The notes under the pieces are model-generated. The model had not been told where the DNA came from. It worked only from the letters and a program-made list of their open reading frames with translations, and made no database searches. Positions 28,993 through 64,000 of a stretch of DNA of 64,000 nt are shown one piece after another (the first letter of the stretch is position 1; each line of letters begins with the position of its first letter). The DNA comes from Hysterangium stoloniferum. Lineage: Eukaryota > Basidiomycota > Agaricomycetes > Hysterangiales > Hysterangiaceae. The translations under genes were made by a program, and so were the position numbers. The stretch is from assembly GCA_015178975.1 (NCBI GenBank), contig WHVD01000008.1, forward strand, positions 372,001 through 436,000, read 5' to 3'.

Positions 28993-29296
28993 TTTCCTTT
29001 TCTCATTGGAGCTTGTTAAGTATCAGTGTCAACACAACTAGTATTGTATGCCTCAAGATGGTCAGTTTAGATGGAACTAGGCTAATCTCCATGGCTCTTA
29101 ACACACTATCAGTGGATCGATTGACTTCAAATTAAGGTCATGTCTTTCCTTTTCTCATTGGAGCTTGTTAAGTATCAGTGTTAACACAACTAGTATTGTA
29201 TGCCTCAAGATGGTCATTGCAGATGGAACTAGGCTAGTCTCCATGGCTCTTAACACAATATCAGTGGACTGATTGACTTCAAATCAAGGTCATGTC
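28993..29296. repeat. 152-bp tandem duplication at the 3' end of gene A
   Basis: Units 28,993-29,144 and 29,145-29,296 are direct repeats, nearly identical (for example ctcattggagcttgttaagt in both). The right unit includes the last codons and stop of gene A, and the left unit carries a copy of the same codons and stop. The gene's 3' end and 3' untranslated region were therefore duplicated in tandem. Confidence 0.92.
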
Positions 29297-32200
29297 TTCC
29301 ATAATTATTTGTGGCTTCAGCTCAGGGCAGGTTTCAAGTTGAGTTGTCACCTGTTTTAAAAGCTCTTCAACAGCAATTTCCCCTTCATGTGGTGAACCAA
29401 CTGAACTATGATCACTTCTCAGCAATAGTTGGACAATATCAATATAATTTCTATTTACAGCTGCAATGAGTGCTGTTCCATAACATAACGACTGTATATT
29501 AACATTTGCACCCATTCTCAAAAGTAGCTGGACTATATTCTGATGCCCTCCACAAACTGCTGCAATGAGTGCAGTACAAAAGCCATGTGTCTGTGCATTA
29601 ATGTCTACCTGAAGCTGTGAAAGCAGGTGCACCACATATATCTCACCAACAAAGGCTGCTGCAATTAGTGCTGTCCCATAATATTCTGTAGGGTCTGTTT
29701 GTAAATTTACATCTGCACCCCTACTAAGAAGAAGTTGAACTATTTGCAGTTGCCCACTGTTTATTGCAGTTATAAGGGCAGAACCAAAACCACTGGTTTG
29801 TGCATTAATATCTGCACCCATAGTTAAAAGCAATTGGACAACCTCAATGAATCCCTCTTGTGAAGCTGCAATGAGTGCTGTGCCATATTTTCCTGCCTGT
29901 GCATTCACATCAGCACCCAAACTTAGAAGTATCTCAACTGATTCCAGGTACCCCTCATGTGCTGCTGCAATGAGTGCTGTACCAAATTCACCACCTTTTA
30001 CATTGATGTCTGCACCTCTACATGCAAGGAGTCTAATAGTCTCATACTCTCCTCCATGAGCTGCTGCCATGAGTGCTGTCCCATAGTACCCTGCCTGTAA
30101 ATTGATATCTCTAATCAGACTAAGAAACAGCTTAACTGCATCAATGTATCCCTCATGTGCTGCTGCATGGAGTGCTGTCCCATGATACTGTGTCACTGTG
30201 GTTGAATCTGCACCTTCATGAAGAAGTAACTGGATCACACTCATATGACCCTCATCTGCTGCTGCTATGAGTGCTGTGGCATATTCACCCCCCTGTAGAT
30301 TTACATCTGCCTTGTTGTGCAAAAGTAGCTTCACAACTTCCAGGTGCCCTCTGGATGCTGCAGCTATAAGTGCTGTGCCTGATTCACCTGCCTGTGCATT
30401 GATATTGGGATGTGAATACAGGAGTACCTGCACAACCTCAACACACCCTCCATATGATGCTGTGATTAGTGCTGTGCCATAACTACCTGCCACTGCATCA
30501 ACATCTCCACCAAAGTCTAGAAGCAACTTAATGATTCCAATCTCTCTTGTGTGTGCTGCTATCATGAGGGCTGTTCCATGTTCATGTACCTGTGCATTCA
30601 CATCTGCACCCTCACGTAGTAGAAGGTTAACAATATCTATGTGACCCTCATGTGCTGCAATCATAAGTGCTGTGCCAAATTCTTTAGTCTGTACATTGAC
30701 ATCTGCACCTGTGTTAAAAAGCAGTTGAATGACATCTATATGTCCCTCATGTGTTGCTGCTATGAGTGCTGTACCATGATTGTGCACATCAGCATTAACA
30801 TCTGCACCCTTGGCTACAAGTAGCTTAATAACATCAACATGTCCTTCAAGTGCTGCTGCTATGAGTGCTGTACCAAATTCCCCTGTATTTGTATTGACAT
30901 CAACTCCTATGCTCAGGAGAAACTGCACCACATCAACATGGCCTTTGTGTGCTGCAGCAATAAGTGGAGTTTTGAAGTCACCTGCCTGTGTAATCATATC
31001 AGCACCATTTTCCACTAACAACTGGACTATATCCATATGTCCCTGATATGCAGCTGCAATGACTGCAGAGCCATAATGTCCCCTCTGTATATTAATATCT
31101 GCCTTCCTTTCCAGCAAGGTTACTGACACATCATACAGACCATGATATGCAGCTAGATACATTGGGGATTCATCACCATGAGCCTGCCAGGGATATTGAA
31201 AGCTCCTAGGACTCCAAACCATAAACTGGTTACTATTCTCCTCAAACAATTTCATGATGAGGTTGTGATATTTGTCTAGTATCCCATGCTGACTGTGGTT
31301 TGCATGCAGGATCCATCCTGAAGCACTGTATTGAATCAATGGATGGAGTCTCTCCAAGCTTTTTTGGTCCATGGTTTTGGGTGAGAACTGGTCTTGGAAC
31401 TGAAATAAATATGTAAGACACATTTTACTAATCACTCTATGTGCCATTCTCTCTTCAAGATAAAGAGTGGAGTGTGTGGGGTGATTATAGTGATTTGACA
31501 TCAAATATTCCTTTACAGACATATGAGCTAACTTGAAAGTTCCTAAAAAAATATAATAATCAAAACATTGACCCTTCATTTTTTATAAATAATTTAACCT
31601 TCTGTGTGTATGACGAGGCCTGAACAGACACTGAGAATATCCATTGGATCTCGATACACTGATCTTCTGTTGAAGGGCATGCACACATCACCAACATCAT
31701 AATCCATATTTATCCCAGTAATTTCAGCCAACTCATGGACTTTCAAGGGCTCTATTGAAAATGCCAGCCATTGGAAAAATTTCAAGGCATCTGCTTTCCA
31801 TTTTGGGGGTATCCTCAGAACCATTTTCTTGTACAGTTCATCAAGACCTGTTGGTAGCCTCGATAGTTGTTCTTCAAGGTCAGTATCATTGTAGCATGTT
31901 TGAAGCTCTTCAAGTTGTAATGCTACCCATCGGAACCTGACAAAAAAAATAAAAATAAAAGATAATTAGTCATGAAATTGTATGTAATGTGCAAATGACA
32001 CATACATCCCCTCTGCCTTCTCCTTTAGGGTTTTGACAAGGGTATCCTGAGCAGTACTATCAAGTGAGTATAAATGGCCTGTGTCTTGGAGTGTTACATG
32101 GATATAGATGCAGATATCATTATTTTCCGTCACTCTTTCAAGGAATAGAGACTCATGGTTTATTGAATCCAATATTCTTCGAATTGATACTTCTGGACGT

Positions 32201-34099
32201 GCAGTCACTATAATGTGTAGACTTTGATCATGCTGTTTAAGCAAGCCCTTGAGCCATTTTAGTACTTTGAAAGGCTCAGAACATTCGTCAATGGCATCTA
32301 AAACAATATATGCATGATCAAACATCGCTAGCAGACAACTGAATGTAATCTCCAGAGATGCGAGACATGGTTGTTGCATCCCATCTTTGTAGATTTCAAG
32401 TACACCATGTGGAATATCAAAGCATTTTGATATGACCTGTTTCACTAGAGAACATATTAATTTTTGATGTAGCTGAAATCCATCTTGCAAATCTCTAGAG
32501 TCGAAAAAGAAATATAATAATAGATGTGATGGGTGTTTGTCACAGTGGTTTTGCAGGTTGTCAATGATTGAAGAGCTGTAAAGTCATATTTATTTTCGAG
32601 AATCAAGGGATTTTTGTTGAAACACTTCTTACCATAAAACTGTCTTGCCAGAACCTGCTACATAGTCAATTAGGCATAGGTATAGCCCAGGTTGATTACA
32701 AACACATACGAATGCCGTAGATCCAGAGACATTGATTGCATTGTGCCTTCCATCCTGCAAATTGCATTCCATTGATAAACCAATCACCCGTGCCTTTAGT
32801 GCACTTTTCATGTGCTTCATTGAAAATGTTTGACGGGTTGGGTGCCGAAAGCCAGTCGTAGATTGCTTCTCGGAGATGTTGTGTTGCTGAGTCACCCTAT
32901 TGTAAGTTTTCTCAGAGTCTATAATATTCAATGCATTACCTGGATTATTATATAGTTGAAGGTCCCTGTGTAAGGGCACATAATGTTTCTGCCAATTCTT
33001 GTGGATATTTGATGGAGCCTTTTGTGTCATTTGGAATAAAATCTGAGCTAGCACAGCATAGTCATTATCCTTCGCTGAGTGAAATTGTATTAGATCAATG
33101 TGACTCTTGTGGATTGCGATGACCTCTGTATCAATTGCTCCAGGTACGGTGGCAGAGTCCGCAGGGATATGCTACAGGAGGGTAGGTCAATAGTGAACAA
33201 ATAAGAACAGAAGTGAAAATCATCTTAACAGATAAACCGCCTGGTTTTATAGTATGGTACGTCTCGTAGCAGAAGATTGTATGGTACTTCCAACTGATAG
33301 CACTGTATTGTGCAATCTGTTGCTGGAGTGATTCAGAGTGCAGCCCTAAGTGCTTCAGTTGCAGGTCATTAGTCTGGAAGCGAGTTGATAGACCCTGCAG
33401 GAGAGTTTGAGTCCAATGGCGAAGGTTAACACCTTGATGAGGGGTCCCCAAAAAGATAATTCCGTAAGTCGACAATTCAATGGCCTTGTATTTTGGGAGA
33501 TGTGTTGTATTGGCAGCGTTGGCATGTATGAGGGCCTAACATGTGTTACTTTTTGGTGTGCCGAAGGGGATGTCTAAAATACTACTTACATATTTTAATA
33601 AAATGCCACCAAAACTATGCGCCACGAAAATCAGTGGTCGCTTCTGCATTTCCGTGAATTGTCAAGCCGACCCTCATGGAAAAACATGGAAAAACGCACT
33701 TCAGTATTTGTGTGCACCCTAAACGTCGAAAGTTTGGCAATGAGGTCGACAGATAGATCATACAGTGTTTGCTGTGATCTGTTTACGCCTTGAGTACGTG
33801 CATCGTATCCATACGTCAAAACCCTTGCGGTGGGGATGGAAGTTGGCAAAAGATCACGAAGCCAGAGGACACCGTTTGATGCTGTGAATGACCACTCAGG
33901 ATCCCCATCGAGGCCATGGATTGCAACGATACTACCGTTGAAGCTACATCAGCTGGTCGCCCGATTGGAAACTAAAGTGCTGTTATATCACTTACTCGAC
34001 GGTAGGGAACTCTCCCCCAGATGCTAGAATGCTCACTCCAAATCTCGATATCTCATAAGTAGAGGCAGAGAGGAGTGAAGAAAATTGTACAGTTGGCAT
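29279..34099 (-). CDS. Gene A: alpha/beta-hydrolase + NACHT + ankyrin NLR-type protein (1433 aa, 10 exons)
   Basis: Intact by eye. Exons on the minus strand: 34099-33996, 33931-33700, 33643-33590, 33535-33230, 33171-32940, 32886-32710, 32657-32633, 32575-32006, 31936-31599, 31542-29279. All introns are 52-69 nt GT..AG, and the phases close to 1434 codons. The N-terminal part is a SesB-like serine esterase: DIVAIHGLDGD near residue 35, nucleophile elbow VAHSFGG with Ser ~122, GTPHQG ~155. NACHT has P-loop GIPGSGKT (~367-374) and Walker B VLDAIDEC (~468-475), followed by a winged-helix-like region. Residues ~803-1400 hold 18 ankyrin repeats of 33 residues with a near-constant GTALIAAA core. In fungal NLRs such N-domains are thought to act as effectors, NACHT as a switch and repeats as the recognition part. 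That role is inferred here, not shown. No signal peptide or membrane segment is evident, so a cytosolic protein is likely. Confidence 0.92.
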
Positions 34100-34894
34100 G
34101 TTCGAAGTTGTTGTTCAAGAATGTGAGGGGACGCTGTCAGTAAATAGGGCGCAGCCGGGGAGTGCGTGCTATTGCAACAAGAAGATGCGCTAATTTTAGG
34201 TAAAAGTGAGATCATATCGTGAGTTTGCGAAGTACGTTGACACATTGACGGCAGGGTAGTCAGAGAGTCATCCACGATTCATTGTACCAATCATCGGGAT
34301 CAGATGGATTTATCACACAAACATCTGATTAGTGATTGGCAAGGCCCGGCCTCAGGGAGTGGGCCGGCTGAGCCTATTCTCCCTGAATTTCAAACCAAAA
34401 AAGTGTGTAATTGTGGCGGGGGAGCTGATTCTTTGACAGAGGTCCAAATGTTAAATAACAGGAAATAAGAAATTCTGAAGGAATAACCCCATATATATAT
34501 ATGGTGTATACAAAGTATTATATCTTACTTTCTCCCCGTTATGGAGCTATATGGCAATTTGTTTTTGGCAAAGCGGACTTTTTTTATTGATTTTCAAATT
34601 CCGCACTATGTACCCGAAACATCTGTAACATTAGAGTCAAGTGTTGGAATATTGCAAGCCGTTGAGAGTGCTCACAGTCTGACTACACTCGGCTCTTTAG
34701 TACTGTACAGTAGCTTAGTCATCACATGTATTTTGGTAGGGACTTTGTCATCCCCTCACCCACATGAAATCCCATTGCATATTCTTACATCAAGCATCCT
34801 CCAAATTGACAGCCGCTGTAAATAAACTCCCTGAGTTCTAGGCAATTAACATATCCACATTTGTAGTGGTAATTTCCAAATGTCGCACCCCATC
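34100..34894. other. Upstream region of gene A
   Basis: Holds the presumed promoter of gene A (minus strand). A run of at-dinucleotides at 34,491-34,501 is the only notable simple sequence. The ORF at 34,541-34,825 on the plus strand has no recognisable domain. No TATA box can be assigned with confidence. Confidence 0.35.
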
Positions 34895-36250
34895 TGTTAG
34901 TAATAAATACTTTATTGGAAATGCATATTGTGGACCATCCTGAGTGAGGCTGATGCATGATTTTACCAACGTACTATTAGAATGAAAGAAGGGAAGGGGG
35001 ATCGGGGCACAGAATAGTGACCCTAGTGGACGAATAGACCACCACTCATACTCAAACTCAGACTCAGATTGACCGCATGGTGGACAGAACCAAAGCCATG
35101 GATAAGGACTACTATGGATACATGTGGGTACTTAAGGTTCTGAACCACATATTCCAACACTCCCACCTGGTGAGAGAACCAAAAGAACAAAACTCCCACC
35201 AGATTGAATAATCCACCAATAGTCCAAATTAAAATGCTCCCACCAAATCTTGCCAGTAATAACCAAATAAAAGATGACAAGAGAAGTCTCCACATGAAAA
35301 GAAAGTTTTAATAAAGGTTGGGAGTTCCATTGTGAAAGGAAGTGGGGGCAGATGAAAAATAAAACCAAAATACTAGCAAATCCAGATTAAACACATCCAG
35401 GAAATCCAAAATCCATCAAAGGAGACACTGGTAGTGCTCATGGGAGGACCATAAGGGAAAGGAATGTTGTTAGACTTGTTGAATATAATATATTGTGGAG
35501 ATGATGGAAAGAAGATGCCGGAAATGCATGGGATGACGCATTGACAGGACCATGACCAAAAATGATCCAAAAAGGGATTATTTAATTGGTCAGAAAGGTG
35601 GATGGAGATGAAAAGTGGTCATGCTCATCAAAAATTCCATCAGAAACTAGTTGTGGCTCTCTCCACAATGTCTACAAAACTCCGGATGACGACTGTCACA
35701 ATGGTGTGACACAGCGTGACATCAGTGTCACAGGTGTCTGCTGGCGGATGTTGGGGGCTGCACAGAGGCAACAACAGTGCATGGTGATATAAAACATGAA
35801 TGAGTTGTGGATGGATGTTGCAAGATGGTGCTGTGAGCAGAAGAAAGAAATTGGTGAAGTGGATCCCACAGAGATCAAAGAATAATGGAGGATGTTGCCA
35901 GGGCAATGCCGGGGCCCATAACCTATTAGAATGAAAGAAGGGAAGGGGGATCGGGGCACAGAATAGTGACCCTAGTGGACGAATAGACCACCACTCATAC
36001 TCAAACTCAGACTCAGATTGACCGCATGGTGGACAGAACCAAAGCCATGGATAAGGACTACTATGGATACATGTGGGTACTTAAGGTTCTGAACCACATA
36101 TTCCAACACGTACACCTAAACTATCACCAAACCTTTCATGTCAGAAGTTAACTCACTAACTGACACATTAATTGATACAAGTACGTCATTACAAGCTTAT
36201 TAAACCCTTGTAGATTGTGTATTTACAATAAGGCAACTCATGCTAATATA
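34895..36250 (+). mobile_element. Solo LTR, family F, split by a small LTR element
   Basis: The left part (34,895-34,974, starting TGTTAGTAATAAATAC) and the right part (36,114-~36,250, with caagcttattaaacccttgt) match the family F solo LTR at 6229-6497 in opposite orientation. The gap between them is exactly the small element 34,975-36,108 plus its cgtac duplication. The outer end and target duplication are not clear. Confidence 0.7.
34975..36108 (+). mobile_element. Small non-autonomous LTR retrotransposon (TRIM-like), looks whole and young
   Basis: 1134 bp. LTRs 34,975-35,159 and 35,924-36,108 are each 185 bp and identical at every position by eye. Ends are TATTAGAATG and TTCCAACA. Perfect cgtac target duplication at 34,970-34,974 and 36,109-36,113. 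The 764-bp interior has no gag or pol motif; its longest frames are under 90 codons and unrecognised. Identical LTRs mean recent insertion. Relatives are a solo LTR at 46,880-47,050 and a minus-strand piece at ~42,000-42,146. Confidence 0.9.
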
Positions 36251-37645
36251 CTTTGTGATGGGGGATCTTCAGCTGCAAAAATCGGTCAAGCGATCTAACC
36301 TTTATTTTAAGTGTCAACTGTGATCATAACTAATAGCTAATAGTATGTCCTCTAAAAAGGTATATCTATCGCAAGTAAATGAGGGGAGCTAGTTTTTTTA
36401 GTTCAGAGTGTCTGCGCTTTGTGGGACCATAATCCTGACATCTTACGCCTCTTGGTGACCGGAGGGGTTTTGGCAAGTGCGGGCCTCTTCGTCATTGTTA
36501 TTTACGGTTAGTTTGTCTGCGGATTCCCTACCATACACATGTCTCATATGTGGCAAGGACCATTACATTTTCTATTCGTGAGCCAACTACATATGAACTG
36601 CCACATTTCACGGGCTTATATGGAGCATTTTGAACATCGTAGGGCATCTTGGGGTGTCACCTTGGACTAATTCTGCTAGGAAACTTTGTATCGTTGAGAG
36701 CAGACCCAAAATACTCGTACCTAGTTATGCATTGCCAGTGAGGCTCATCGCTCTCCCTCTCAAGCTATTGTTCACGGGACAATAGATACTCTTTGATGTA
36801 TTTCTCCTTACTCTCGCCGTATGGAATGCATTAGATTGTTCTGGTCTCATGAGAACAGCCATAATTAAATAGCTATACCGAGATGGTGTTGAATTCTTTT
36901 TGGTAGGTTCATTAATATTCGAGTGCTGATAATATATTAATGTGGGCTACGGCTTACTTCATGTGAGAAATGATGATGGCTTGTTAGTGTCGACTGGAAT
37001 ACTTAGCGGAAAACGCCAGTGCTTCGTTTATTGAATATCGTGGTTCTGTTAAAATTTGATGTGTGTGGACTCGTACCTCTCCATATTAAACGCTGTTCAC
37101 CAGATTGCTTATGTGCGCTGGCCTTGTAGTATGGGATCTTTATTTCTATGACTGAGAGACTGAGGTGATACTAATTTCGAATAGCTTTTTCTGAGCAATA
37201 ATTGCAATTCTTCTCAATAGGATGATTCTTGAAAGGCTGTTGGTATCAGCCTCACTCAGTCAGCAACAGACAGGACAAAGTTCTCTTTGTTGATCATAGG
37301 GGGAGAACATGATAGCTATCTGGTAGGGGGGTGGAATAACTAACTACCCTCGGAAAGGACTATTGTCAATATAATATACCTGAATTAACAATGGGATGAT
37401 GGAAATAAGGTTTAAGGAATTATAAATAGAACAAAAGGATGATCAAGGCAGAGAGATAAAATAATAGATCTTGATCGGGTCGGAATAATGTAGCCAATGT
37501 GTGGTAAGACAGGCAGGATTACAATTCTCGTCACCGTTATGATGCCGCTGCTACTGACTCCGTTCTCGAGCTCATTGTCCAAATCGGAAGAAGATAGCTG
37601 CTCCACAACCCCTATTTATTATGTAGGGTAATTGCATGATGTAGG
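36251..37645. other. Spacer, no gene recognised
   Basis: About 1.4 kb of unremarkable sequence. Stops are frequent in all frames and no repeat shared with the rest of the window was seen. Confidence 0.4.
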
Positions 37646-42361: not shown

Positions 42362-44197
42362 TTCGCGCACTAAACGCCATTAGTTATTGGACGCCCAGGA
42401 TCCAAAACATAAAAGGCATGAAAACTCACCCGATTTCGCTTGGGCTACTCGCAAGAGTAGCCAACATTGGAATTATCAGTGCCAGCCCTAGATTATCGAG
42501 TGGTTGTTAGGTATTTGCATCCTACCCAGTATTATGTGACTTACAAGCGCCAGATGATATCCCATACAGCACCGAAACAACAATCAGAGATGCAGAAGAA
42601 GAACTGTCACGTGTAAGGGCAGGTTATTTCCATAGATCGGAATACTACTTACAGGCCTAGGATAGCCCAGATCATGGCCCCGGCAGCAAGCGTCATGGCC
42701 AAATGAATGTCCCATACTCCGTAAATATCAGCAAGGTAATTCATAACAATTTTCTTAGGACACCAGAGCCATTCACTATTGGAACCTAGAGACCTCGTGC
42801 ATGAATCGTGCGTGTGAGAAGTTCAAGCGCAAGGATGACACACAGAGTAAAACGCCAGATTGTTGCTCGAGGAGTGCTGTACCGCATAAAGTTGGACATA
42901 AACAACTTCATCCATTAACATCACACGTTCATTTTGAGACTCAATTTAGAATCGAGCCTGGAAAGAGCGAGCCTAGGGAAGCAATTGTTATCCTATCATA
43001 AAAGTTGTAAGCATTTCGTTATCATGAAAGAAATTACTCACCCGACGACGAATGCCATATATGAAGATCTTTGAAGAAGCCTTTTATATCTTGGCGTGTG
43101 CCGGATCGCGGGATCCGGACAGGCCTAATTAGAATGTTACCCAGGATGAGACCGCCTAATGATATATATGCGGTTATATGGACGGAATTGGCAAAGCCAA
43201 AGCGGGGAAGTATATGGCTATCGTAGTATTCTATTAAGCAATAAAAGGAGACCGGCTAGCACTTACTTTAATACTGGAATGAATCCACCATCAGTGACAA
43301 AGGTAATTACAATCAAATTTTCAGGAACTCAACCAATGGGGAAAAAGATAGCACCGATGGAGCTTCCAGACATTGCTATGCCATAGGCCAGGACCTTTCT
43401 TTTCTTAAAGTGATGGCCTATGATGGCTGACGCTGGAGTGAATATTAACCCCATACCAACACCTATCCCTAATCCTTGACTGAGAAAAACCTAGGCATAA
43501 TTCAGTCTGCAAGATTAAAAACTCTCGCATCACGATATACTACCGACTTGGTAAAAACGGTCAGGTGTTGCCAATGAAAGCATGAACATTCTGTGGCATA
43601 TTTACGATGATTAATTATCACAATTAAGAGAGAAGCCCTTACGAGAACAAGAAGATAAATGATCCCAATGTCATGGTTAATCGGAGATGGCCGGCATCGA
43701 ATAGTTTACCAGCAACAGGTCCAAGTCCAAACGAAAGGGCAATTTGCACGCTTACCGTCCATCTTTAAAGAAACGGTATAGTATTTGCCAAGAAGTTAAT
43801 GGAAAAAATTACGCAATGGTACTCGGGCTATGTGATGTGAGAAAGACGCGAGTGTAGTAGTCTGGCATGCCGCATGTCAGGGTGTGTGGACATTTCGAAA
43901 AGCACAATTATTGACCTTGGAATGCTCCAAAGGAGTACATGTAGCTGTATACAATTAAGAACATCATATTCAAGAAAGAATATCACACACCCTGCCGAAC
44001 TAAATAAAACGAGCCAGCTTAAAGCATTGCTGTTAGCTTCACGTTGAACGACCTAACGAACTATTTACGCACGAGCCGGTAACTGTCATCCAACCATTAC
44101 GACCCCCATCCACAATACGTTCTTTCGGTTTGACACTGTCCAGGGAAATAACAGCACTCGTCTCGCTAGAAAGTTTCAAGTCAGTTGGTGACGACAT
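42362..44197 (-). pseudogene. Decayed copy of the MFS transporter gene
   Basis: Colinear with the intact gene at 38,913-40,999 over most exons, including the 7-nt exon. The ATG is at 44,197 (MSSPTDLKLSSETS). Well-kept parts include GPVAGKLFDAGHLRLTMT near 43,700 and GIGVGMGLIFTPASAIIGHH near 43,440. Lesions seen: one-base losses near 43,945 and 43,068, a deletion and frame change near 42,757, and loss of similarity after the codons for GARMG at about 42,365, which removes the last ~60 residues. It is therefore a pseudogene, probably from a local duplication. Splice sites are mostly conserved, so decay is not very old. Confidence 0.85.
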
Positions 44198-49836: not shown

Positions 49837-52509
49837 ATGACTACGCCAGATCATAACACAGACCAGGGCATCAAAGTGCTCTCCGAGGGGAAATTTCCAA
49901 CCGTTGAGTACGCATTTTGAGCTATAGTATGATTTTCCGTTTAGTATTGAACTGTGATTTGCTTAGTATTGTAGCAATACACGGTCTGGATGGACATCGC
50001 GAACTGTCTTGGGCTGCCGAAAACGGGAGACTCTGGCTGCGCGATTTCCTGCCCAGCAAGCTCCCTCACGCCAGGATCGTTACTTACGGCTACAATACAG
50101 TTGAGAATCAATCCAACTCGATGGAAATTATTCATAGTCAAGGCCATAATTTCATCTCGCGCCTCGCCTTGTTTAGAGATGCTATGTCTACCAAGGTATG
50201 TTTAAACTCGTACACTTCTAATTTCCTTATTTATCCAAAGGATAGACCCGTCCTATCATTTTCCTCGCACACAGTTTAGGTGGAATTATTCTGAAATCTG
50301 TAAGTCTCTCTGACGCAACTCTATGGCAATTGGAGGTATTGGCTGACTGGCATACTTTCACTGAAGGCTCTAATACATGCCAGTCATTGTCACAAGTCGC
50401 ATCTTAGCCATCATAAACAAATAGTACAAGCAACGTATGGGGTAGTCTTCTTAGCAACCCCCCATCAAGGCACTGCAATTGCTGAGTTGGCCTCTCAACT
50501 GTTGAGAGTTTCATTGCCTCAAAAGAGTACAATGGTGTATTTGTTCAGGGATCTGGCGTCCAATGCCAGCATGTTCGAGATCATGTTGTCTGAGTACAAT
50601 GCCATCAGTGCTAACTTCGTGACAAAGTTCTTCTATGAGGTACACAAAACAACTCTAGTTGATGGTCAGACAGAGTTTGTCAGTACCTTTCCTCTTATAC
50701 ACCCCTTTTCTTCTTTAACTGAAAATGATTTAGCTTTTGCCTAAATTATCTGCTGTCATACCAGGTGCAGTAAATGTAGAGTCAATAGGGCTGCAGAAGA
50801 ACCACAATGGCATGGCTAAGTTTGCCTATAATGAGGATGATGATTTCATCACTTTAGCACGGGTTCTTCATAATATGGCATGCCTGGCTATTCAAATGAC
50901 ATACAGCACATATGTCAACCAGCTTGGATATGTAGGGGAGAAACCTATCCTAGACCTAAACAAATCGATACTGGGACGCCATGCAGTATCTCTGAATCGT
51001 TTACCCTCTTTGGCTGAAGAAGTAACGTTGCCACACCAATATCTTCCATCTCCCACGGATGATGACACAGTCGCAATCAAGGCTGTTCAGTCCAAAACTG
51101 CATCAATAAAACGGAGATTCCTCTCGATGTTTTCTTTGAGGCGGCATGCCACACATCCCCCGGGGGTCGACCTTCACGTGTCAGTATTGCCAATGCTGGA
51201 AGTGTATCCCAGGCAACTTTATTTTGATAAAACATCCCATTATAATGAATTAATTACACCACCCTATACTCCTATTTCTCGAGATAATAGCTCTTACTTC
51301 ATAGGTTCACCCTTTGGGCAAATAAAGAATGCCCAAATAGCTGGTGTCATAGGACCAAAAGTGGGTAATGGCCCCCATGTGGCATCTAGCTCTACACCAT
51401 CCCTGTTGGAGGTATTCTCGAAGCACAGCACAGATTGCCTTGACGGTCGTATTAATCATCGTAGTGAGCATGCTGTCACCGGTGGGGGGTATGCAGATAT
51501 ATGGACTGGGGAATTAGAGCAGCAGAAAGTTGCTCTCAAGACTATCAGAGGTTTCGGTAGTATGGGTGTACCCCTCCTAAGAGAGAAGCTATTAAAGGTA
51601 GATAATCATTGTAAGGTTCGAACTGGAGCGTTATTCACGATATTGAATAATATTAGCGGCTGTGGCGAGAGTATCTGGTGTGGTCTCAACTGAAGCATCC
51701 CAACATCCTCCAATGTCTGGGATTTTCATATGATACAACCCCAAGCTCACCATTTAAGTTGCCCGCCTTGGTATCACCGTGGATGTCCAATGGTACGGCG
51801 GTGTCATACATAAGGTCAAAGCCGGATGTAGACCGATTGTCATTGGTGTGTTTTTCCAAACACCCTGACCATCTTATACTTACCGGTACCTGTTATAGAT
51901 TATGGGGATTATTACAGGCCTAGTATTTTTACATGAGCGCGAGGTAGTTCATGGTGATATCCGTGCCGTATGTACAACTGTCATTTCAGTAGTACTATGA
52001 GACTAATTCACGTACAGGGTAACATACTAGTTTCAGCAGAAGGGATTCCTCATTTGACCGACTTCGGATTGTCCAGGATTCTGGATGGTACAGTTGGGGT
52101 GACTACATCCTCCAATGTAGCTGGTTCTCTGCGGTGGATGTCTCATGAATTGATCAATAACCAAAAGGCTGATAAAAAGAGTGATGTCTGGGCATTTGGA
52201 ATGACAGTGCTGGTACTTGAATTATCGAAATTCTATGTGGCTTTCACTCAAACAACGGTGTCCTCTGATGATACTTTATAGGAGATACTTACTGGAGAAC
52301 AACCATACGCTGAAATTAAACTCGATCCAGCCGTTTTAATGTTGATCATCAAAGGCATTTTCCCTTCCCGCCCCAAAGCATCGTTCGCGCCTGCTTTGAC
52401 GGATGAGATGTGGAAGATCTGCTGCCTATGCTGGAGGCTAGATCCAAAAAAGCGGCCTCACATCCATGAAATACATAAAAAGTCAAAACACATTTTTGAG
52501 AAATACTAG
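49837..52509 (+). CDS. Gene B: alpha/beta-hydrolase + protein kinase fusion (736 aa, 9 exons)
   Basis: Intact by eye. Exons: 49837-49907, 49967-50195, 50246-50299, 50367-50678, 50734-51597, 51657-51845, 51899-51967, 52018-52212, 52282-52509. Introns are 50-69 nt GT..AG; lengths sum to 2211 nt in phase. The N-terminal module is shared with genes A and C: DIVAIHGLDGHRE, elbow FLAHSLGG with Ser ~110, ATPHQG. A ~200-residue linker follows. Residues ~465-730 are a protein kinase: glycine loop TGGGYADIW, VALK with Lys ~491, HGDIRAGNIL with catalytic Asp ~593, LTDFGLSR with Asp ~611, SDVWAFGMTVLEILTGEQPY. All key residues are present. The HGD form is common in the large fungal tyrosine-kinase-like group. 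No NACHT, repeat, signal peptide or membrane segment is seen. The role is inferred as a signalling or defence-type protein by analogy with NLR modules; substrates are unknown. Confidence 0.92.
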
Positions 52510-55450: not shown

Positions 55451-55965
55451 TTGTAACAGTTGTGACAACACCAGCACCCAATAGATCCAATTAAGTGTAG
55501 ACTGCTGGACCTTAACAGGACCACAGCACCATTGTGCCACCATCACCTTTATAGTAAAAGAGCTTGGTGGGTCCATGGGCATTTTTAGATGCCATTAAGG
55601 TACTGTTTTTAGCACCATCTTAATAAGCACCTTTCCCACACTGGTGCATTTGTGCCATTGTGGAAGCATTTTTGAAATTGTGGGATCAAATCATTGCAAG
55701 GCAGGAGCATTTTTGCCAGCATCAGAGCATTCCACTTTTCCCCATACTCAAAGGAAATCTAGAAGCCTACTAAGTCTAAGGTACCAAACATTGAAGGGTT
55801 TTTTGAGGCACTGTATTTCTGAGGATTAACCAATGACATGTAAGATGGGGCTTCAGCTTAGTGTTGTGCTCTCACAAATTGTTCAGTTGTTAACATATTC
55901 TCAGGTCCAACCATAGTCTGGAGGCTATAGATTAAGTCAATGTTAAAAGTGTAGAAAATGAATGG
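55451..55965. other. Spacer, repeat-like
   Basis: No gene recognised. gggcttcagcttagtgttgt near 55,848 is another weak form of the LTR core motif, so part of this stretch is probably old LTR. Confidence 0.4.
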
Positions 55966-56045
55966 CCAGACTGTGAATTGAACCCAGGGCTTGTGCATAT
56001 TGTATATAGCAAGGATGTTACCAATTACACCTCCTGACCCTGGGG
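55966..56045 (-). ncRNA. tRNA-like sequence (SINE or tRNA relic)
   Basis: On the minus strand: an A-box-like gtgtaattggtaacat, then a B box GGTTCAATTC within ctgggttcaattcacag, a T-arm-like hairpin. Outer segments ggtcagg and tctggcc can partly pair. The anticodon arm does not close with a normal 7-base loop. It is therefore read as a tRNA-derived SINE or a tRNA pseudogene rather than a working tRNA. Confidence 0.45.
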
Positions 56046-56184
56046 AAACGTACTAGCATTACATGATCTAACAGTTAAGAGGTTTCAGTCAAGTATCTGA
56101 GGCTAAAAAAGGTCTTGATAGGGGAGATGGAAGGTTAGAGTTGTCTTCTAGTGCACCATCCAAAATGAATCTGGCTAATGAGGA
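56046..56184. other. Short spacer
   Basis: No feature recognised. Confidence 0.4.
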
Positions 56185-57400
56185 TTCAATCAAAAGAGGG
56201 TTATGGAGGATAACCCAAAACTTTTAAAAGTTATTTATCCACTAAAGTATATATATTTATATTGTTTGTTGTAAAATTAATATTTAATCAAATTCAGTCT
56301 ATCAGATGACATTCTGGAGAATAAGGAAATATTAATATTAATCTTGTATCTGACAAAGTTAGTCAAACAAACATATATAGATTATCCTTTTGGGGATAAA
56401 TTCCACAATATGGATTGGTTGGCCAGATAGTTCTGGTTAACTTTCTAAACCAAATAAATTTAAATTATACAAACTACATTTGAAAGTTTGCATAATATAC
56501 TAGAGAATGCATCTCATCCCAAAGATTAAGTCATAACCCAAATAATTTTGGTTAACCATGACATTTGTGCATATTTTAAAAGAGTATACAAGTTTTAAAG
56601 ATGAAATTTTGAGGTAATGAAATATAAACTCCTAAAACATATAGTCATAGCCAAAGGAAATACATAGTTGTTAAGAACAGAAAACTGACTGATGTCAGTA
56701 GACCGACAGGGACTGAGTGGAAGGACTTGGCTTCAGCTTATATGCTGCACCCTCGCAAATTGCTGTCAGGTGTCCTTAAACTTCAGGCAGACAAAAAACT
56801 AATCCTGTTGAATAATTCTCTCAGTAAGTCACTGATCAGAAGCCAAAGGATAAGACGGGTTGGGTCGAAGATCAGTAACCGAGGGTGAGCGAGCACAAGC
56901 TGAGGTGGAGAGTGGAATACTTAGAGTGAGACTATGAGAGTTGTTTAGGAGTGTTCTGAGTCGATATTCTGATTGTCCTGATACTACAATACATGAGCGG
57001 CTTATATATGGGAATCCAGCACTTATCTGAACGAGAACAGAACAAAGGAAAGTACTAATGGAGAAGGCAGAACTACATATAGTGACACGAAAATGGAGAG
57101 TGATAGATGGAACATTACAAATCTGGACATAGACTACTATGGGGGCAGAAAAGGCATAAACTGGTTGTATAGGATAAGGGGCAGATGGAAATACCAATCG
57201 GGAACAATAAAGGTGCTTAATGGGGTTAGTTGGGGTACCAACAGGTTTGCAAGTGATTGGAGTTTTTGCATGAAGTCCAATCAGGTCTGACGGTGTGCTG
57301 AGCACATGGGTCATAACAATAGTCTCACTTAAAATATGAGGACTTTTCCATAAAATTTTGTATATTTAATGAAGTGTGACTATCCTCCTATATATGTATT
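56185..57400 (-). mobile_element. LTR piece related to 23,621-24,260, split by a solo LTR
   Basis: Segments 56,185-56,663 and 57,319-57,400 are the reverse complement of about 23,630-24,260 (gggataaattccacaatatgg; caagttttaaagatgaaatt; gtgactatcctcctatatat). The gap is the solo LTR at 56,669-57,318. The part corresponding to the 3' 400 bp of the LTR is missing. Confidence 0.8.
56669..57318 (-). mobile_element. Solo LTR, 650 bp
   Basis: Perfect atagt duplication at 56,664-56,668 and 57,319-57,323. Starts TGTTAAGAACAG, ends GGGTCATAACA. Core motif near 56,730. Related to but distinct from families A and B. Confidence 0.92.
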
Positions 57401-58170
57401 TCTAATCCATCATGGTCAGGATATTCTCCCAACCAGTAGTCTCCCCCAGGGCAGAAGAACCACCCTCCAAAGCAGTTTTTTCCTCTCATTGATGACTCTT
57501 CCAGATATTTTATGCAGAACATCTACAATGTGTTTGAGTAATACAATGAGACGATACATATAGCAAGCAGGATCCAAAAAAAATGTAGGGCTTCAAAAAT
57601 ACATAATATGCTTACACCAGCATTTGTAATATATGCACTTAGTTTTTGACACTCCCACTTGAGTGTGACCTGAGTCCCTGTCCACAAATGTCTTGTGCTT
57701 GTCATAAGAGGGGGGGGGGTGGGTATGTCTGCTACTACATATGAAGGCCATTTGGGTATGAAATTGTGGATCTTTTAACAAGATTATTGCTGCTTAATTG
57801 TCACATAGGATTTCAGTGGATAATTTCTGTCTGTGGCCTATTTCCTTGAAGAAGCTATGCAAGTAGGTTTGTCTCTTGGTGCTCCATCTGATTGTCCCTC
57901 TATTACTAATGAAGGTGAAGCCTGATGTGGAGTGAAATGTTTCCAAGTTGCACCAATCTGCATCTGAGTATCTGTGAAAATTTATCGTCATGCCCACATC
58001 CAGTCCATCACATCTTAAAACCATTTCTGCCTTCAAATAATGGAGCACTCCTCCCAATGGCACTTCTTGGGGTTTGAACTGTAATGTCCAAGCACTCCCA
58101 CTGTTGCTGCCAACAACAGGTCATCAACATATACAACAAGAAAACAAATGAGCTTGTTTTCTCAGTACAC
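57401..58170 (-). mobile_element. Ty1/copia pol relic, RT end and RNase H (fossil)
   Basis: Minus-strand motifs: YVDDLLLAA near 58,120 (RT), YSDADWCNLETFHSTSGFTF near 57,930 and an EILCDN motif near 57,800 (RNase H). A decayed 3' part runs to ~57,530. These are characteristic of the C-terminal pol of Ty1/copia. Broken; no LTRs recognised. Confidence 0.8.
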
Positions 58171-58900
58171 ATAAAGACCTGTATTTATCTTTTGAATTAA
58201 ATATAAATACCAAAGTGTCAAAAAAATTGAGTTATTTGTAGTTACAATGGACAGTACATATGTGGATGGTTCAGTATGGTATAGGCTGTATACAACTTTG
58301 ATGCTTCACACAATGAGACAGACAGTATAGTTGGCTGTCGGGAAGACATGCAGGACTTGTTACAGTAAATATTGCCTGGGTGTGAAAGAGCGGAACTCTG
58401 CTAACTTTTAGTGTTAAGGCAGAGGGTGAGCGGAGAGGCAAATACAGGGGGTAGAGGTGAAGGTGGAGACTCTGGATGCGAAGGCGGAGACAAGGGAAAT
58501 ACACAAATGATGGGACACAGAAGTAGAGGTCAGGAAAGGCCCACTTCTGTAAGTAAATTTTGGTATTGGATTGATATTGGTGTTTTACCTGAACCGATCC
58601 AGCCCCAAAGCCCCAGCTTTGGCCTGGCTTGTCGGAGTTCCGGTCCACTCAAATCGTGCCAGCTCGGGCCCCGGCTTTTAGCATGATAAATACATGAATA
58701 CATAAATGCATAAATAAAACTTTATTCTTGTGATATCTAATCTCTGAGTCATTTTCTTTGTGAATTCAACATTCATCCTAACCTTCATCTGCATCAATCA
58801 AAAATTCCGAAGTTCCTGGGTTTGATTTTCCATTTTAATGTAATAGATCAATAATTAAATTTAAATCAATTCTCAATAAACTGGGATAATCCTAAAGATA
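58171..58900. other. Spacer, no gene recognised
   Basis: A purine-rich stretch at 58,420-58,500 and a GC-richer stretch at 58,580-58,680 stand out. Overlapping frames on the two strands shadow one another and show no domain. Confidence 0.35.
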
Positions 58901-61060
58901 TAAATAAAGAAAAACATATGAGACGTTGAGAACATAGCAACGGCAGCATACACAAGCGGGATGGATAACAGCATAGAAACAGATCCTGTAATAGGCACCA
59001 CCATGGGGTGAGTCACAGACACTAAGCAGAGCAGTCTCGTCGCTAGGTTTTATCCCAACCCCCAATACTGGCAAGCATATGATAGACGCCATAAAGTCAT
59101 TGTCGCGAGTCCCCACATTTTGAATCGCGAGAGCAAGGGGGTGGCCAGCCGTCACGCCACATTAGCACACAGGCCATTTTCTTTCTAGTGCCGTGGTTGA
59201 CACCTAAGCCACCTAAGATAAACAGCACCTCTCCTTCGCATGCTACCCCGATGCGAAGTACATCTGAAATTGAAGGCAGACCCAACACTGCGACTGCGAG
59301 TAGGGCTGTGCGCACTCAGGCGGGGCCCCAGTTATCAAATACGAAATAGTCTGCATATGGGTATGGAGGCTCAAACGTGGCGGATAGTGTAGGATGGCGG
59401 TGATGATATATCTTGACTTTTGACGAGGAATGGAATATTTGACAGTAAGGCGTAAGTGCTTGATGAATTGATGAAAGCCAACTGGTACTATTGGTAGGGG
59501 TTGTCTGAGACAACAGGTTGCGCGTGATGAGGGAAGAACGATTGGGTTATATGTCCGACGACTGATTCTAATAGATTCCAAGTCGACCGAGTAGTTTACA
59601 GCTATATGAAGAGTGAGATGCTCTCCACGATGAGCGGCGAGCCTCGAAGATGCATTCGCCGATGTTTTTCCGAGGCACTAGACGACTCTGCCAGCGGATG
59701 GATCGCGTAATTGATCATAAAGGTACGAGCGCCGTGAAGAGGATTCGAATACAGATATACAGATATCATGGGTAAGGCTTGTAGCGCTAGGACGAATAAA
59801 AGATCAGTGTTCTGGGCGAGTAGATAAGCGAACACGACGTAGCGTAAGTATGTCAACGTCGATTTCCAGCTGCAGACGACGGAATTCGTCCATCCCTGCA
59901 CAAGGAACGTGAACTTCAAGCGCCGTTCCCGGTCTTATAGTACTCTCGAACTATCTGACCGATGAATGTAACGTTGCGGCCTCAGATCACTCCTCTCTCA
60001 TGCTACCCTGAAGTAGCACCGGCGCCTACTAAATGGGACACGAACAAGAAGTTGAACCTCAGGCAGTTGGGAAACTAAAACTTGACATCCATGCATCGTT
60101 GTGTGACGACGACTGAACATGTGGAAGAGGTGAGATAAGCTTGGATAGTTGGGAGTAAAGCGATAGGTAGATAAGAATGCTGTAGCGCCGACAGGAATAT
60201 CCTCGTATACCAGTTTGTTCACCAGTCAACGGTAGGGAAGGGTACACGATGAATGGATGACGCAGAAGATTGGCGTCACCAGGTGATGCAGGAGAATATG
60301 GCGACAACGATGTTGGGAATGGAATGGGGGGATGGAGCCAAGAGGAGATCTCTCCAAACGAGCAACTATGTCGAACCAATACGCACTCGTTGCGCTTGAA
60401 ACCATTCACGACACGTGAACATCCAAAGAGACATCCTCTGGTTTGGTGACTCATTCGGATGCAATGCGTGGCAGGTAATGACCCGCGGTTATTGTGCTGC
60501 AGGGCGGAGACGCGGTATGAGGTTATGTAGACAGACACTAGTGTTACGTCACACGTAAACGAATGAAGCCGTGCATCCATGGGTCGAATCGAATGAAGCG
60601 TTGCATAAGGAGCACATAGGACCAGTGCAATCCTCGCCCTCGATGTGCAAATTAAGACTTTGCGGCAGTGACGGGGTGGAGCACGGTGGATGATACGTTT
60701 GTAAAATGGAGATGATGGAATAAAGACAGAGGTAACGTAGAATACCTCAGAACGAGAATGCGCGTACCACCCCTATCCAACATTGTGTCCGTACGACTGC
60801 CTGAGGACTGACCCAGCCACCGAGGCATGTCAACGCCATAATAGTGCCCAGGCACAATGGATATGGCAACTTGAACGCTATACAGGGTAGTATTTGAACC
60901 CAAAAAGATCCCGACATTGGTATAACGGCCGCTCGGAGTCGATGTGGATAAAATAGTCCAACAATTCTGCTTGAGGTGCAGGTCAGCGTAAATAGTAGTA
61001 CTATGGATATAGTCACACATGCCATATGCACTCATCTTTCATGATCGGCCGGGCTTCTTA
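58901..61060 (-). other. Possible unrecognised gene region, minus strand
   Basis: GC is higher than in the flanking repeats and there are no copies elsewhere in the window. Minus-strand frames are frequent. One at 60,747-61,031 gives hydrophobic stretches (TISIVLLFTLTC; PYPLCLGTIMALTCL), and one at 59,602-59,919 gives YLRYVVFAYLLAQN and LLFVLALQALPM. This could be a multi-pass membrane protein gene with several introns, or a decayed one. I could not build a consistent exon chain and recognise no domain. Confidence 0.3.
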
Positions 61061-61272
61061 CTGTCACGAACATATAAGACGTGGATGGATGAGCGCTCGT
61101 CTACGCGTGGGAACAGCGTTTCGCACAGGTTAAAAACTACAGAACCAGATTATCAATCTATGCAATAATGATCTTGATTTGCAAAGGCGCGATCAACCCC
61201 CTATGTGTAACCGTATGATATGCGAGAAGTCTAATCTGTTTCCCACACAGCCCTTTGATCATAACTCCGACC
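61061..61272. promoter_or_regulatory. Presumed promoter region of gene C
   Basis: About 210 bp between the unrecognised region and the gene C start. No clear TATA or other motif; called by position only. Confidence 0.3.
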
Positions 61273-64000
61273 ATGTCTACACCCACACAGTACGGGGTGA
61301 AGGAGCTTGCGTCTGGAGGGAAGTCGCCTACAGTTGAGTAAGTAATGCCTCGTTTGTACCCAAGGACTACAACACTTATATGCACAGTATTGTTGCCATT
61401 CATGGCCTTAATGGTCATCGAGAGAAAACATTTACTGCGACGAATGGTGTTCTTTGGCTTCAGGATCTTTTACCAAAGATCCTTCCAAAAGCGAGAGTTC
61501 TAAGCTACGGATATGATGGACGTACACATGGCGTCAATAGGTCCCAACAGAATCTTAACGATTTCTCCTTAGACCTAGTTGCAAAGTTGGCTACCTTTCG
61601 ATGCTACACAAAAACTGAGGTACTCCTTGACGCTTTTAGACCCGCTGACGCATGCAATGTGGACCTTCTTTTTTCAGAAGCGCCCGTTGATTTTCATCCC
61701 TTATGGCTATGGTGGAATAATCCTGAAAAACGTAAGTCAAATATGTATACCCGTATCTACTATATATCAACCCTCTTCAGGCCCTTATCCATGCAAGTTT
61801 AGCAAACTCACGACACCTTATGCCTCATAAGGCTATTGACGTCTCGACATATGGCATTGTATTTTTTGGAACCCCTCACCAAGGCCTTGATCCTGCGACG
61901 TGGCCACAGGCACCCATTGATGACATATCTAGCGGTACCCACTGTAATGAACCTATTCCTCCAGAACTTGTGTTACAATCTCCTGCGCTGCAGCAGCAGT
62001 TATCCCAGTATACCTCCATAAGCTCTAATTACCGCACAATATTCTGTTATCCAGTTTATCCCACCTGTGAATCAACAAATGCATGTAGTTTCATCTATGT
62101 CACTCTTCATTCTAATTGAAATTTAACAGAAAAATCCTGCCTTTGTGGCAAGTGTGCCAGGTTTCATTAATGCAGAGGCTTTTGCTATTCATAAGAACCA
62201 TGCGACGATGGCACAGTTTAATTCACAGGAAGATGGGGAATTTGAATGTCTGACCCAGCTCCTATTACAAATGGTGGAAGAATCACTGTTCCATGTCGAT
62301 GAGAAGTGGAGTTCAGCCTTGCGGGGCTTGTTCATAAGCACTACTCGTCACAATCCAGGTGGTGTAAATAGTGTATGTAGTAATTATGAAGAACTAATGT
62401 CCAACCCCGACCCTATAGATATAACAGAAACTCGTATGCAGATAGAAAATTGGCTTTCTGCTTCAGATCAATCCACGAACCTGCAATTGGCACAGGATAT
62501 CAAAACCGAAGGTACAGGAACTTGGTTTATTCAAGGCTTGCAGTTCACGAAATGGAAGGAGAATTCTGGTGAATGCCTCTGGGTTTATGGGAGTTGTATG
62601 TTTGTTATGTGTGGAACATTTATATCATCTCACCACATTTTTGCCTATAGCTGGTTGCGGAAAAACCATTCTATGGTGAGAAGATCTCAAGGATCCTTAC
62701 ATATTAGAATATTACCTAAAGTTCAATTAAAATTCAACAGTTCCTCAATCATTGAAGATATTGAAAAGCATTGTGTTAAGCATACGTCGCATGCATTGAC
62801 CTACTTTTTCTTCACCGCCAATAATGCACATGGACCTCAGTCATGTCAGGAATTGATCAAGTCCCTTATTAAACAGCTCACTTCAAGCTGCTATAACATT
62901 CCCCCTCGACTTCTTCAACTCTGCAGAGACAGCAGTCGACCACCAACTTGGAAGTCCCTCAAAGTCATATTTGATGATTTACTCGATATGTTCAATCATG
63001 TGTATATCATTTTAGATGCTCTGGATGAATGTTCTGAAATTCCACAGTTACTTGTATGGCTTAAACATCTGGTTGGACACAAGCTTGCAATGCTGCACAT
63101 TCTGGTGACTACACAGCCACAGAGACCTATTCAAAGGCAGCTAGACTCACTGAGCTCAGAACACATTTTCCTGAACAATGCATCCGACAATAATGATATT
63201 ATGGTACATATCAACACCACCTTACAAGAGGAGTGTTACTATTCAATACATAGCAATCTTCGGAGCCAAATATCAGAGACCTTGAATGATCGTGCTCATG
63301 GAATGTATGTTAGCCCCAAAAACCATTAGAGTGCAGTTCATTGATATTGTTAATAGGTTTAGATGGGTATCATTGAAACTAGATTCCCTGAAAAACTGCC
63401 AAAGTCCCAACGAACTCTGGGAACAATTGAATAGTCACCCAATTGATCTATATGACATATACACCAAAATGCTCAGTCAAATCCCTGTAATGTGGAAAGT
63501 AGAGGCTTTGGATTTCTTCCGGTGGCTAGCATTTTCTAAGAAATATTTGGAAGCAAAAGAGCTGGCTCAGATCACTGGAATTAAAATTGGTTATGACATA
63601 CATGATGCACAGCCACCTTTTGACCCACATGCTGTGTACTTTGATCCTCTGGACATCATCACTGTATGCACCAGTCTTGTTATTCATGTAGAAGGTAGGA
63701 TGATATATTTTTACTATCTACCCATCAATTCATTTTCAGCCTATAGGAAAGCTCAAGTTGATCCATGAATCAGTAGCAGAGTACCTCAAATCAGAACTCT
63801 GTGCCTTGGTTGGTGTCAAGGAAAATATGGCACAAGAAGTTATCACAAGGATGTCTCTCATCTACTTGCTCCAGTTTCAACCACAATTCTCTGTTACAAT
63901 TCAGGATTCTACCCAGCTTGAGGAGATTCACCCTTTACTCCATTACTCTGCTTCCCAGTGGATTTCTCATGCAAGGGATGGTGGGGAGGAGGTGTTACAG
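61273..64000 (+). CDS. Gene C: alpha/beta-hydrolase-like + NACHT protein, 3' end outside the window
   Basis: Partial, cut by the window edge. Exons: 61273-61337, 61388-61619, 61678-61731, 61781-62080, 62130-62595, 62651-62675, 62741-63304, 63357-63694, 63747->64000. The intron at 62,081-62,129 needs a GC donor; the others are GT..AG, 49-65 nt. Exons of 232, 54, 25 and 338 nt have the same size and phase as in gene A. Starts MSTPTQYGVKELASGG, then DIVAIHGLNGH and GTPHQG. Where A and B have the nucleophile elbow (AHSxGG), C has IPYGYGG near residues 106-112, so the catalytic Ser is absent. NACHT: P-loop GSSGCGKT (~371-378), Walker B IILDALDEC. The last visible part (LIHESVAEYLKSE, then LHYSASQWISHA) matches the region before the ankyrin repeats in A. 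Probably the same architecture as A with an inactive hydrolase domain. Confidence 0.9.

What the first reader, a model, noticed from the sequence alone, without database searches (positions are those of the whole stretch)
29279..64000. One hydrolase module paired with three different downstream parts in a 35-kb cluster
Genes A (29,279-34,099), B (49,837-52,509) and C (61,273-end) share the N-terminal alpha/beta-hydrolase module with matching exon sizes and phases (232/229/232 and 54/54/54 nt). A and C then go to NACHT, with ankyrin repeats in A, while B goes to a protein kinase. SesB-like hydrolases as N-domains of fungal NLRs are established. The side-by-side kinase version suggests that whole NLR backbones are exchanged behind one effector, or that B is a signalling partner of A and C.
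Basis: partly seen in the sequence, partly recalled or inferred. Interest (0 to 1): 0.9.

Follow-up and report, generated by a model that had tools for sequence, protein, structure and literature searches.

The report
Immune hydrolase head fused to kinases
In the genome of the truffle-like fungus Hysterangium stoloniferum, the enzyme head that usually sits on immune-receptor-like proteins has been joined to protein kinases at several places, one of them the gene flagged here, which may show fungi wiring a cell-death-type enzyme to a kinase switch instead of a receptor.

Summary
A and C are hydrolase-NACHT genes; B is a real hydrolase-kinase fusion, with the hydrolase end and kinase N-lobe in one 864-nt exon. 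The assembly matches Hysterangium stoloniferum. In a tree of 75 hydrolase modules B branches with NB-ARC/TPR-type receptors (100/99), not with A and C; a clade of A+B+C is rejected (AU p 2e-168). C looks degenerate: Gly for the catalytic Ser, no ankyrin repeats.

A genome scan gave 159 hydrolase loci: 78 near NB-ARC, 29 near NACHT, 3 near a kinase (one of them also NB-ARC), 50 with no partner found. The three are B, C515 (hydrolase-C2-kinase) and C535 (hydrolase-NB-ARC-TPR-kinase, stop in the hydrolase), on separate hydrolase branches. In C515, receptor-derived DNA (81-82% identical, introns included) ends 7-9 residues before similarity to a Clathrus kinase begins. C535's match to a kinase-less duplicate (89%) ends about 160 bases before the kinase part.

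Best reading: a SesB-type effector cassette repeatedly joined to kinases. Kinase control of the hydrolase is inferred.

The parts
29279..34099 (-). Gene A: SesB/DUF676-type hydrolase - NACHT - ankyrin repeats (15 Pfam Ank stretches); 10 exons, 1,433 aa
   Evidence: P-loop GIPGSGKT and hydrolase AHSFGG read
49837..52509 (+). Gene B: hydrolase - linker - TKL-type protein kinase; 9 exons, 736 aa
49837..50880 (+). B, hydrolase module (exons 1-4 and start of exon 5, residues 1 to about 271); Ser110 and His246 conserved
50734..51597 (+). B exon 5: a single exon holding the hydrolase end, the linker and the kinase N-lobe, i.e. the fusion itself
   Evidence: open frame of 319 aa
51361..52509 (+). B, kinase part: similarity to the closer kinase relatives begins at about residue 432; VALK lysine, HGD and DFG motifs present
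61273..64000 (+). Gene C (5' part; ends about 160 bases beyond the window): hydrolase with Gly for the catalytic Ser - NACHT, no ankyrin repeats found

Best explanation
B is a genuine chimeric gene. It carries the SesB-type hydrolase head of an NB-ARC-TPR NLR lineage, its first exons acting as a cassette, placed in front of an Agaricomycete TKL-type kinase. The same genome made such joins at least three times in hydrolase-tree terms: B; C515 (hydrolase-C2-kinase); and C535 (kinase added behind hydrolase-NB-ARC-TPR). Shown here: the gene structures, the separate places of the three hydrolases in the tree, two kinase lineages, and DNA-level ends of homology for C515 and C535. Inferred: in B and C515 the hydrolase is the effector (a lipase/esterase acting on membranes, as proposed for SesB-like domains), and the kinase replaces the nucleotide-binding switch, triggering it by phosphorylation or kinase-driven clustering, in the manner of the HELL-kinase and protease-kinase fusions described in fungi.
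For: One-exon bridge in B. Separate hydrolase origins: tree; AU tests reject A+B+C (2e-168), the three kinase-joined modules together (1.5e-8), and B with the C535 pair (0.0045). C515: 883-aa model, 9 introns, no stops; hydrolase 80.5% identical to NLR P0014 over residues 1-307; 81-82% DNA identity including introns to C112:628k, ending at residue ~305; similarity to the Clathrus kinase P0242 from residue 314, whose own N-terminus does not match the hydrolase. C535: 89.35% DNA identity over 3,540 columns to a copy without kinase, ending about 160 bases before the kinase part. Of 159 hydrolase clusters against 76 kinase positions, 3 co-locations within 9 kb, all downstream on the same strand, 0 in each of the other three orientations, 0.49 expected per class. 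Catalytic motifs kept in B and C515. dN/dS 0.22 for C515 hydrolase against C112:628k. Analogues: PMC12881547 (passages).
Against: No transcript or protein evidence. The control step (kinase drives hydrolase) is inference only. C535's hydrolase has an in-frame stop. A clade of the B and C535 kinases is not rejected (p 0.073), so those two kinases may share an origin. B is a long branch (0.51) at the base of its clade, so its direction of change (NLR to kinase) rests on the surrounding NB-ARC/TPR rows. dN/dS is pairwise, so constraint may predate the fusion. Widened to 20 kb, the co-location control also shows 1 upstream same-strand and 1 upstream opposite-strand pair (1.09 expected per class).
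Confidence: 0.6

Rival explanations
1. The kinase is an integrated decoy or sensor: a copy of a kinase that invaders attack, carried so that tampering with it is sensed and the hydrolase is released.
For: Kinases at the C-terminus of NLRs: C535 here, Gymnopus P0187 NACHT(part)-WHD-ankyrin-kinase, and 9 of 12 kinase-bearing Sordariales NLRs, for which a decoy role was proposed (PMC12258605, section 20). The kinase is C-terminal in all three joins.
Against: B and C515 lack a nucleotide-binding switch; their kinase motifs look intact, which a pure bait need not keep; no kinase target is known.
Confidence: 0.25
2. B and the other joins are by-products of birth-and-death evolution in a large gene family, without a function of their own.
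For: C lost its Ser and has no ankyrin repeats; C535 has a stop in its hydrolase; 50 of 159 hydrolase clusters have no partner found; no expression data.
Against: B and C515 are open through 2.2 and 2.65 kb of coding sequence with GT-AG splice sites and the hydrolase and kinase motifs in place; B is 60% identical to the nearest NLR hydrolase seen, so probably old, yet intact.
Confidence: 0.25
3. B exchanged its backbone with, or signals to, its neighbours A and C.
For: Physical linkage within 35 kb and shared exon pattern.
Against: A+B+C as a clade is rejected; B groups with NB-ARC/TPR-type hydrolases. The exon pattern is not special to A-C: C515 has it too. C looks degenerate.
Confidence: 0.07
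4. B is an assembly or gene-model artefact joining two neighbouring genes.
For: None found; no transcript was available.
Against: Exon 5 is one 864-nt open exon holding both parts; two further joins of the same kind in the same genome.
Confidence: 0.03

Closest known systems
SesB-like (DUF676) hydrolase NLRs of fungi
   Same: N-terminal alpha/beta-hydrolase head; A and C (NACHT) and the C112/C464-type loci (NB-ARC-TPR) are of this kind; in Sordariales the sesB-like head is also seen with T-NACHT, NB-ARC and N-NACHT (PMC12258605, passage)
   Different: B and C515 have no nucleotide-binding domain and no repeats by Pfam. SesB-like heads were reported as almost missing from basidiomycete NLRs (PMC9815663, passage), while this basidiomycete has 107 of 159 hydrolase clusters next to an NB-ARC or NACHT hit
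Fungal effector-kinase fusions (HELL-kinase; protease-kinase)
   Same: A cell-death-type effector domain directly on a kinase, without an NLR body (PMC12881547, passages)
   Different: The effector here is a SesB-type hydrolase, visibly taken from an NLR gene in C515
NLRs with a C-terminal kinase (Sordariales; Gymnopus P0187)
   Same: Kinase behind the repeats, as in C535 (PMC12258605 section 20)
   Different: The Sordariales kinases resemble CHK2/PRD-4; here the kinase is TKL-ccin-like and sits on an NB-ARC-TPR NLR
Agaricomycete TKL expansions (TKL-ccin; FslK)
   Same: B's kinase hits are largely Agaricomycete kinases, some named TKL/TKL-ccin; related kinases are reported as expanded in mushroom-forming fungi (PMC3937382 passages; PMC2838846 passages)
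   Different: No PF05057 (DUF676) in the Pfam labels shown for the 120 listed of 881 hits, one label list being cut; such labels also miss weak hydrolase heads
N-terminal domain swapping in fungal NLRs
   Same: Effector domains change partners recurrently (PMC4986451 passages); kinase and C2 are themselves among the N-terminal NLR domains listed there
   Different: There the head changes on a near-constant NOD; here the head is constant and the NOD body is replaced by a kinase

Membership tests
SesB-like / DUF676 alpha/beta-hydrolase (gene B) | Profile match above curated cut-off | tested here: met
   DUF676 34.7 bits, cut-off 20.3. A 20.7 (met narrowly); C not detected; C515 16.8 (below cut-off), though 80.5% identical to NLR hydrolase P0014
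SesB-like / DUF676 alpha/beta-hydrolase (gene B) | GxSxG-type nucleophile Ser and C-terminal His | tested here: met
   B Ser110, His246; Ser in 66 of 75 rows, His in 72 of 75; C has Gly. The catalytic role of the residues is recalled, not measured
Fungal NLR (gene A) | Effector head, nucleotide-binding domain with P-loop, C-terminal repeats | tested here: met
Fungal NLR (gene B) | Nucleotide-binding domain and repeats | tested here: not met
   No NACHT, NB-ARC or repeat profile at E 0.1
Fungal NLR (gene C) | C-terminal repeats | tested here: not met
   Frame closes where A's ankyrin repeats begin; no A-type ankyrin match in the next 6 kb
TKL-type protein kinase (gene B) | Catalytic motifs and profile | tested here: met
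   PK_Tyr_Ser-Thr 141.2 bits; VALK, HGDIRAGN, DFG read from sequence; some relatives are labelled TKL/TKL-ccin
FslK lineage | Position in the published FslK tree | not tested
   The paper's sequences were not aligned here
Effector-kinase fusion acting in cell death | Kinase-dependent killing or lipase activity | not testable with these tools
   needs expression and assay

The most novel reading that the evidence does not exclude
Basidiomycetes have a receptor class parallel to NLRs in which a kinase, not a nucleotide-binding domain, is the switch for a lipase-type effector. In Hysterangium it arises again and again by moving the NLR hydrolase cassette in front of kinases (B, C515), with hydrolase-NB-ARC-TPR-kinase (C535) showing the other way to bring the two together. 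B would be an old, intact member of this class.
Probability: 0.33. Interest if true: 0.8.

Novelty: new variant of a known kind. Interest (0 to 1): 0.62.

Why it matters
It shows, with ends of homology readable in DNA, how an immune-type effector head leaves its receptor and is rewired to a kinase, more than once in one genome. That gives a direct test of whether kinases can replace NLR switches in fungi, as kinases act upstream of the executioner in animal necroptosis, and of what controls SesB-type hydrolases, whose activity in NLRs is still mostly inferred. It also points to a basidiomycete with a very large SesB-headed NLR repertoire, where such heads had been reported as almost missing.

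Tried and rejected
Rejected: B as a swap with A/C (tree, AU tests). B as a simple internal deletion of the C535-type gene: an early idea of mine (note), dropped because B's hydrolase does not group with the C535 pair (p 0.0045). Chance neighbours: not likely. Capture of a promoter with the cassette in C515: blastn similarity to C112:628k reaches only about 24 bases upstream of the ATG, with weaker similarity by eye to about -100, so not shown.
Led nowhere: Pfam on 20 other window ORFs gave only retroelement pieces and a compositional hit; the solved-structure search showed only kinases among the 60 listed of 2,386. Structure prediction was not used, because I read its stated rule as excluding spliced proteins.
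The 50 loci without a partner were not read. Of the 120 proteins listed the hydrolase tree used 59 of the first 60 (P0031 dropped for short coverage); P0061-P0120 were left out for size. The co-location test used 76 kinase positions picked by hand from the listed rows (175 matches in all), a few loci being represented twice.
Full report
WHAT IS THERE. The window is G000:C533:372001-436000 of a 111-Mb assembly in 554 contigs. Contig lengths of G000 (C533 1,606,866; C535 393,772; C112 2,014,536; C526 430,793; C509 538,458; C464 574,038; C525 435,134; C521 443,480) equal those given for database proteins named Hysterangium stoloniferum, so I take the organism to be that fungus. Genes A, B and C were rebuilt with GT-AG introns. 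A is hydrolase-NACHT-ankyrin, B hydrolase-kinase, C hydrolase-NACHT. A and C have the same phases at all nine introns; B has the same first four.

IS B REAL. Exon 5 of B (50,734-51,597) is one open frame with the end of the hydrolase at its start and the kinase N-lobe at its end. Both domains pass Pfam cut-offs. Ser110 and His246 are present, as are the kinase VALK, HGD and DFG motifs (read). C, by contrast, has Gly at the Ser column. Ser is kept in 66 of 75 modules; of the other 9, three have Asp, two Gly, one Asn, one Cys and two a gap. C's frame also ends where A's ankyrin repeats start.

WHERE THE HYDROLASE OF B COMES FROM. B is 40% identical to A and to C, but 60% to P0001, a hydrolase-NB-ARC-TPR protein of the same genome. 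A maximum-likelihood tree of 75 modules (A, B, C, 13 genomic loci, 59 of the first 60 database hits) puts A and C with P0027 (NACHT-ankyrin) and P0023 (body not labelled) at 99/99, and B as the first branch of a 16-row clade at 100/99. Of the 10 other genomic loci in that clade, 8 have an NB-ARC hit downstream; C125 and C235:747k have no partner found. The five database rows are labelled NB-ARC/TPR (P0001), TPR (P0005), NB-ARC (P0006), or only 'P-loop containing' (P0002, P0004). AU tests reject A+B+C (p 2.4e-168) and A+B+C with the two other rows of their clade (p 7e-4). B is a long row (0.51), so its exact place is unsure.

HOW COMMON ARE SUCH JOINS. Hit positions were clustered into 159 hydrolase loci (lower bound) and compared with NB-ARC, NACHT and kinase positions. 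Of 159, 77 have an NB-ARC hit within 3 kb downstream, 29 a NACHT hit within 4 kb, 1 NB-ARC plus a kinase, 2 a kinase alone (within 9 kb), and 50 none. With 76 kinase positions, all three co-locations within 9 kb are downstream on the same strand, none in the three other orientations, 0.49 expected per class; within 20 kb the counts are 3 downstream same-strand, 1 upstream same-strand, 0 downstream opposite and 1 upstream opposite, with 1.09 expected per class.

SECOND JOIN, C515. Gene model: 10 exons, 883 aa, no stops, with exon 3 again 54 nt. Pfam: kinase 109 bits, C2 24.0 (cut-off 22), DUF676 16.8 (below its cut-off of 20.3). The hydrolase rests on homology: residues 1-307 are 80.5% identical to P0014, an NB-ARC-TPR protein. 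In the tree C515 sits inside a clade of Hysterangium rows (99/94), next to P0014, P0017 and P0020 (91/69). At the DNA level an 81-82% match to the NLR locus C112:628k runs through four introns and ends at about residue 305. Similarity to the kinase protein P0242 of Clathrus columnatus (52%) starts at residue 314, and to the C2-kinase P0241 (metagenome, 54%) at 343; their N-termini match neither C515, B nor A at E 0.01. So an NLR 5' part was joined to a pre-existing C2-kinase type of gene by a DNA-level event. The hydrolase has dN/dS 0.22 against C112:628k over 305 codons. This is pairwise, so it does not date the constraint.

THIRD JOIN, C535. On the minus strand of C535, part of the NB-ARC, the TPR and the kinase N-lobe lie in one 900-aa open frame downstream of hydrolase exons (TPR by Pfam; NB-ARC recognised through its 88%-identical copy C535:25k = P0012). 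That copy, roughly 60 kb away on the same contig, is hydrolase-NB-ARC-TPR, and no kinase match was found in the 2.4 kb after it. The two are 89.35% identical over 3,540 aligned columns; the match ends at the end of the TPR part, about 160 bases before the kinase part. dN/dS over NB-ARC-TPR is 0.29 (665 codons). As 77 of 78 NB-ARC-linked hydrolase loci show no kinase hit within 9 kb, gain is likelier than loss. The hydrolase of the kinase-bearing copy has an in-frame stop in exon 4; an intact sister copy exists.

INDEPENDENCE. One clade of the three kinase-joined hydrolases is rejected (p 1.5e-8), and so is B with the C535 pair (p 0.0045). C515's kinase is of another lineage: 35-37% identical to B's in the three longer matched pieces, 52% in a short one, and the longest branch (about 1.6) of the 24-row kinase tree. 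In that tree the C535 kinase groups with C496/C526/C178 kinases (92/90) and B stands apart, but a clade of the B and C535 kinases is not rejected (p 0.073), so these two kinases may have a common source. The safest count is three joins by hydrolase history, two kinase lineages.

THE KINASES. B's kinase has 881 database relatives at E 0.001; among the 120 listed, names include TKL/TKL-ccin, and no DUF676 appears in the precomputed labels shown. In this genome related kinases follow TPR arrays (C509, C537), long low-complexity stretches, or other sequences. P0187 of Gymnopus androsaceus is NACHT(part, NPHP3_N just under cut-off)-WHD-ankyrin-kinase, an NLR-like protein with a C-terminal kinase in another mushroom.

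HOW IT MAY WORK. From papers (passages seen): SesB-like heads are predicted lipases/esterases and a class of direct effectors (PMC4986451); effector domains fused to kinases occur in fungal cell-death systems (HELL-kinase, protease-kinase-like; PMC12881547); kinases at the C-terminus of Sordariales NLRs were proposed as decoys (PMC12258605, section 20). Inferred: in B and C515 the kinase is the controlling part of a hydrolase effector. The decoy reading fits C535 best. A by-product reading cannot be excluded without expression data.

WHAT IS NEW. I found no description of a SesB/DUF676-kinase fusion in the library: searches (listings), and passages of PMC12258605, PMC9815663, PMC4986451, PMC12881547, PMC10197012, PMC3937382 and PMC2838846. 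Only open-licence papers are held and supplements were not read. Effector swapping in NLRs and effector-kinase fusions are known kinds; this is a new variant joining the two, in a basidiomycete rich in SesB-headed NLRs.

Noticed in passing
G000 C533 as a whole (window contig): 21 of 159 hydrolase clusters lie on this contig, which is 1.4% of the assembly; several (522-553 kb, 605-617 kb) show no NB-ARC or NACHT hit nearby.
   Followed up: partly
P0003 (Hysterangium, contig of 1,606,866 bases) and P0008 (metagenome): Two hydrolase modules in one protein.
   Followed up: partly
L021 (C496, about 32-34 kb): A 491-aa open frame with sequence that resembles a P-type ATPase by eye (recalled, not searched) runs into the kinase N-lobe.
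   Followed up: no
C509: 25-90 kb and 185 kb (L027-L032): Array of TPR-kinase genes and pieces; the NB-ARC query lists no match on C509.
   Followed up: partly
P0187 (Gymnopus androsaceus): NACHT(part)-WHD-ankyrin-kinase: an NLR-like protein with a C-terminal kinase in another mushroom.
   Followed up: partly
P0008, P0051, P0054 (75-row alignment) and P0068: Asp in place of the hydrolase catalytic Ser in three Serendipita modules and one metagenome module.
   Followed up: no
window:5307-5981 (-), window:20226-25267 (+): Retroelement pieces: integrase, aspartic protease, RNase H.
   Followed up: no
window:39323-40981 and 42526-44182: A stretch of about 1.7 kb repeated 3.2 kb further on at 73-86% identity, between A and B; also a 195-base repeat (98%) at 34,974 and 35,923.
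   Followed up: no
window:2912-4033 (+): Open frame of skewed composition (GC skew -0.52 in 2-4 kb); its Pfam hit to a viral nucleoprotein model has no stretch passing on its own and looks compositional.
   Followed up: no
G000 C57:489k and the two C218 loci: Three hydrolase loci with identical scores, each with an NB-ARC hit nearby; perhaps recent duplicates or haplotype copies.
   Followed up: no
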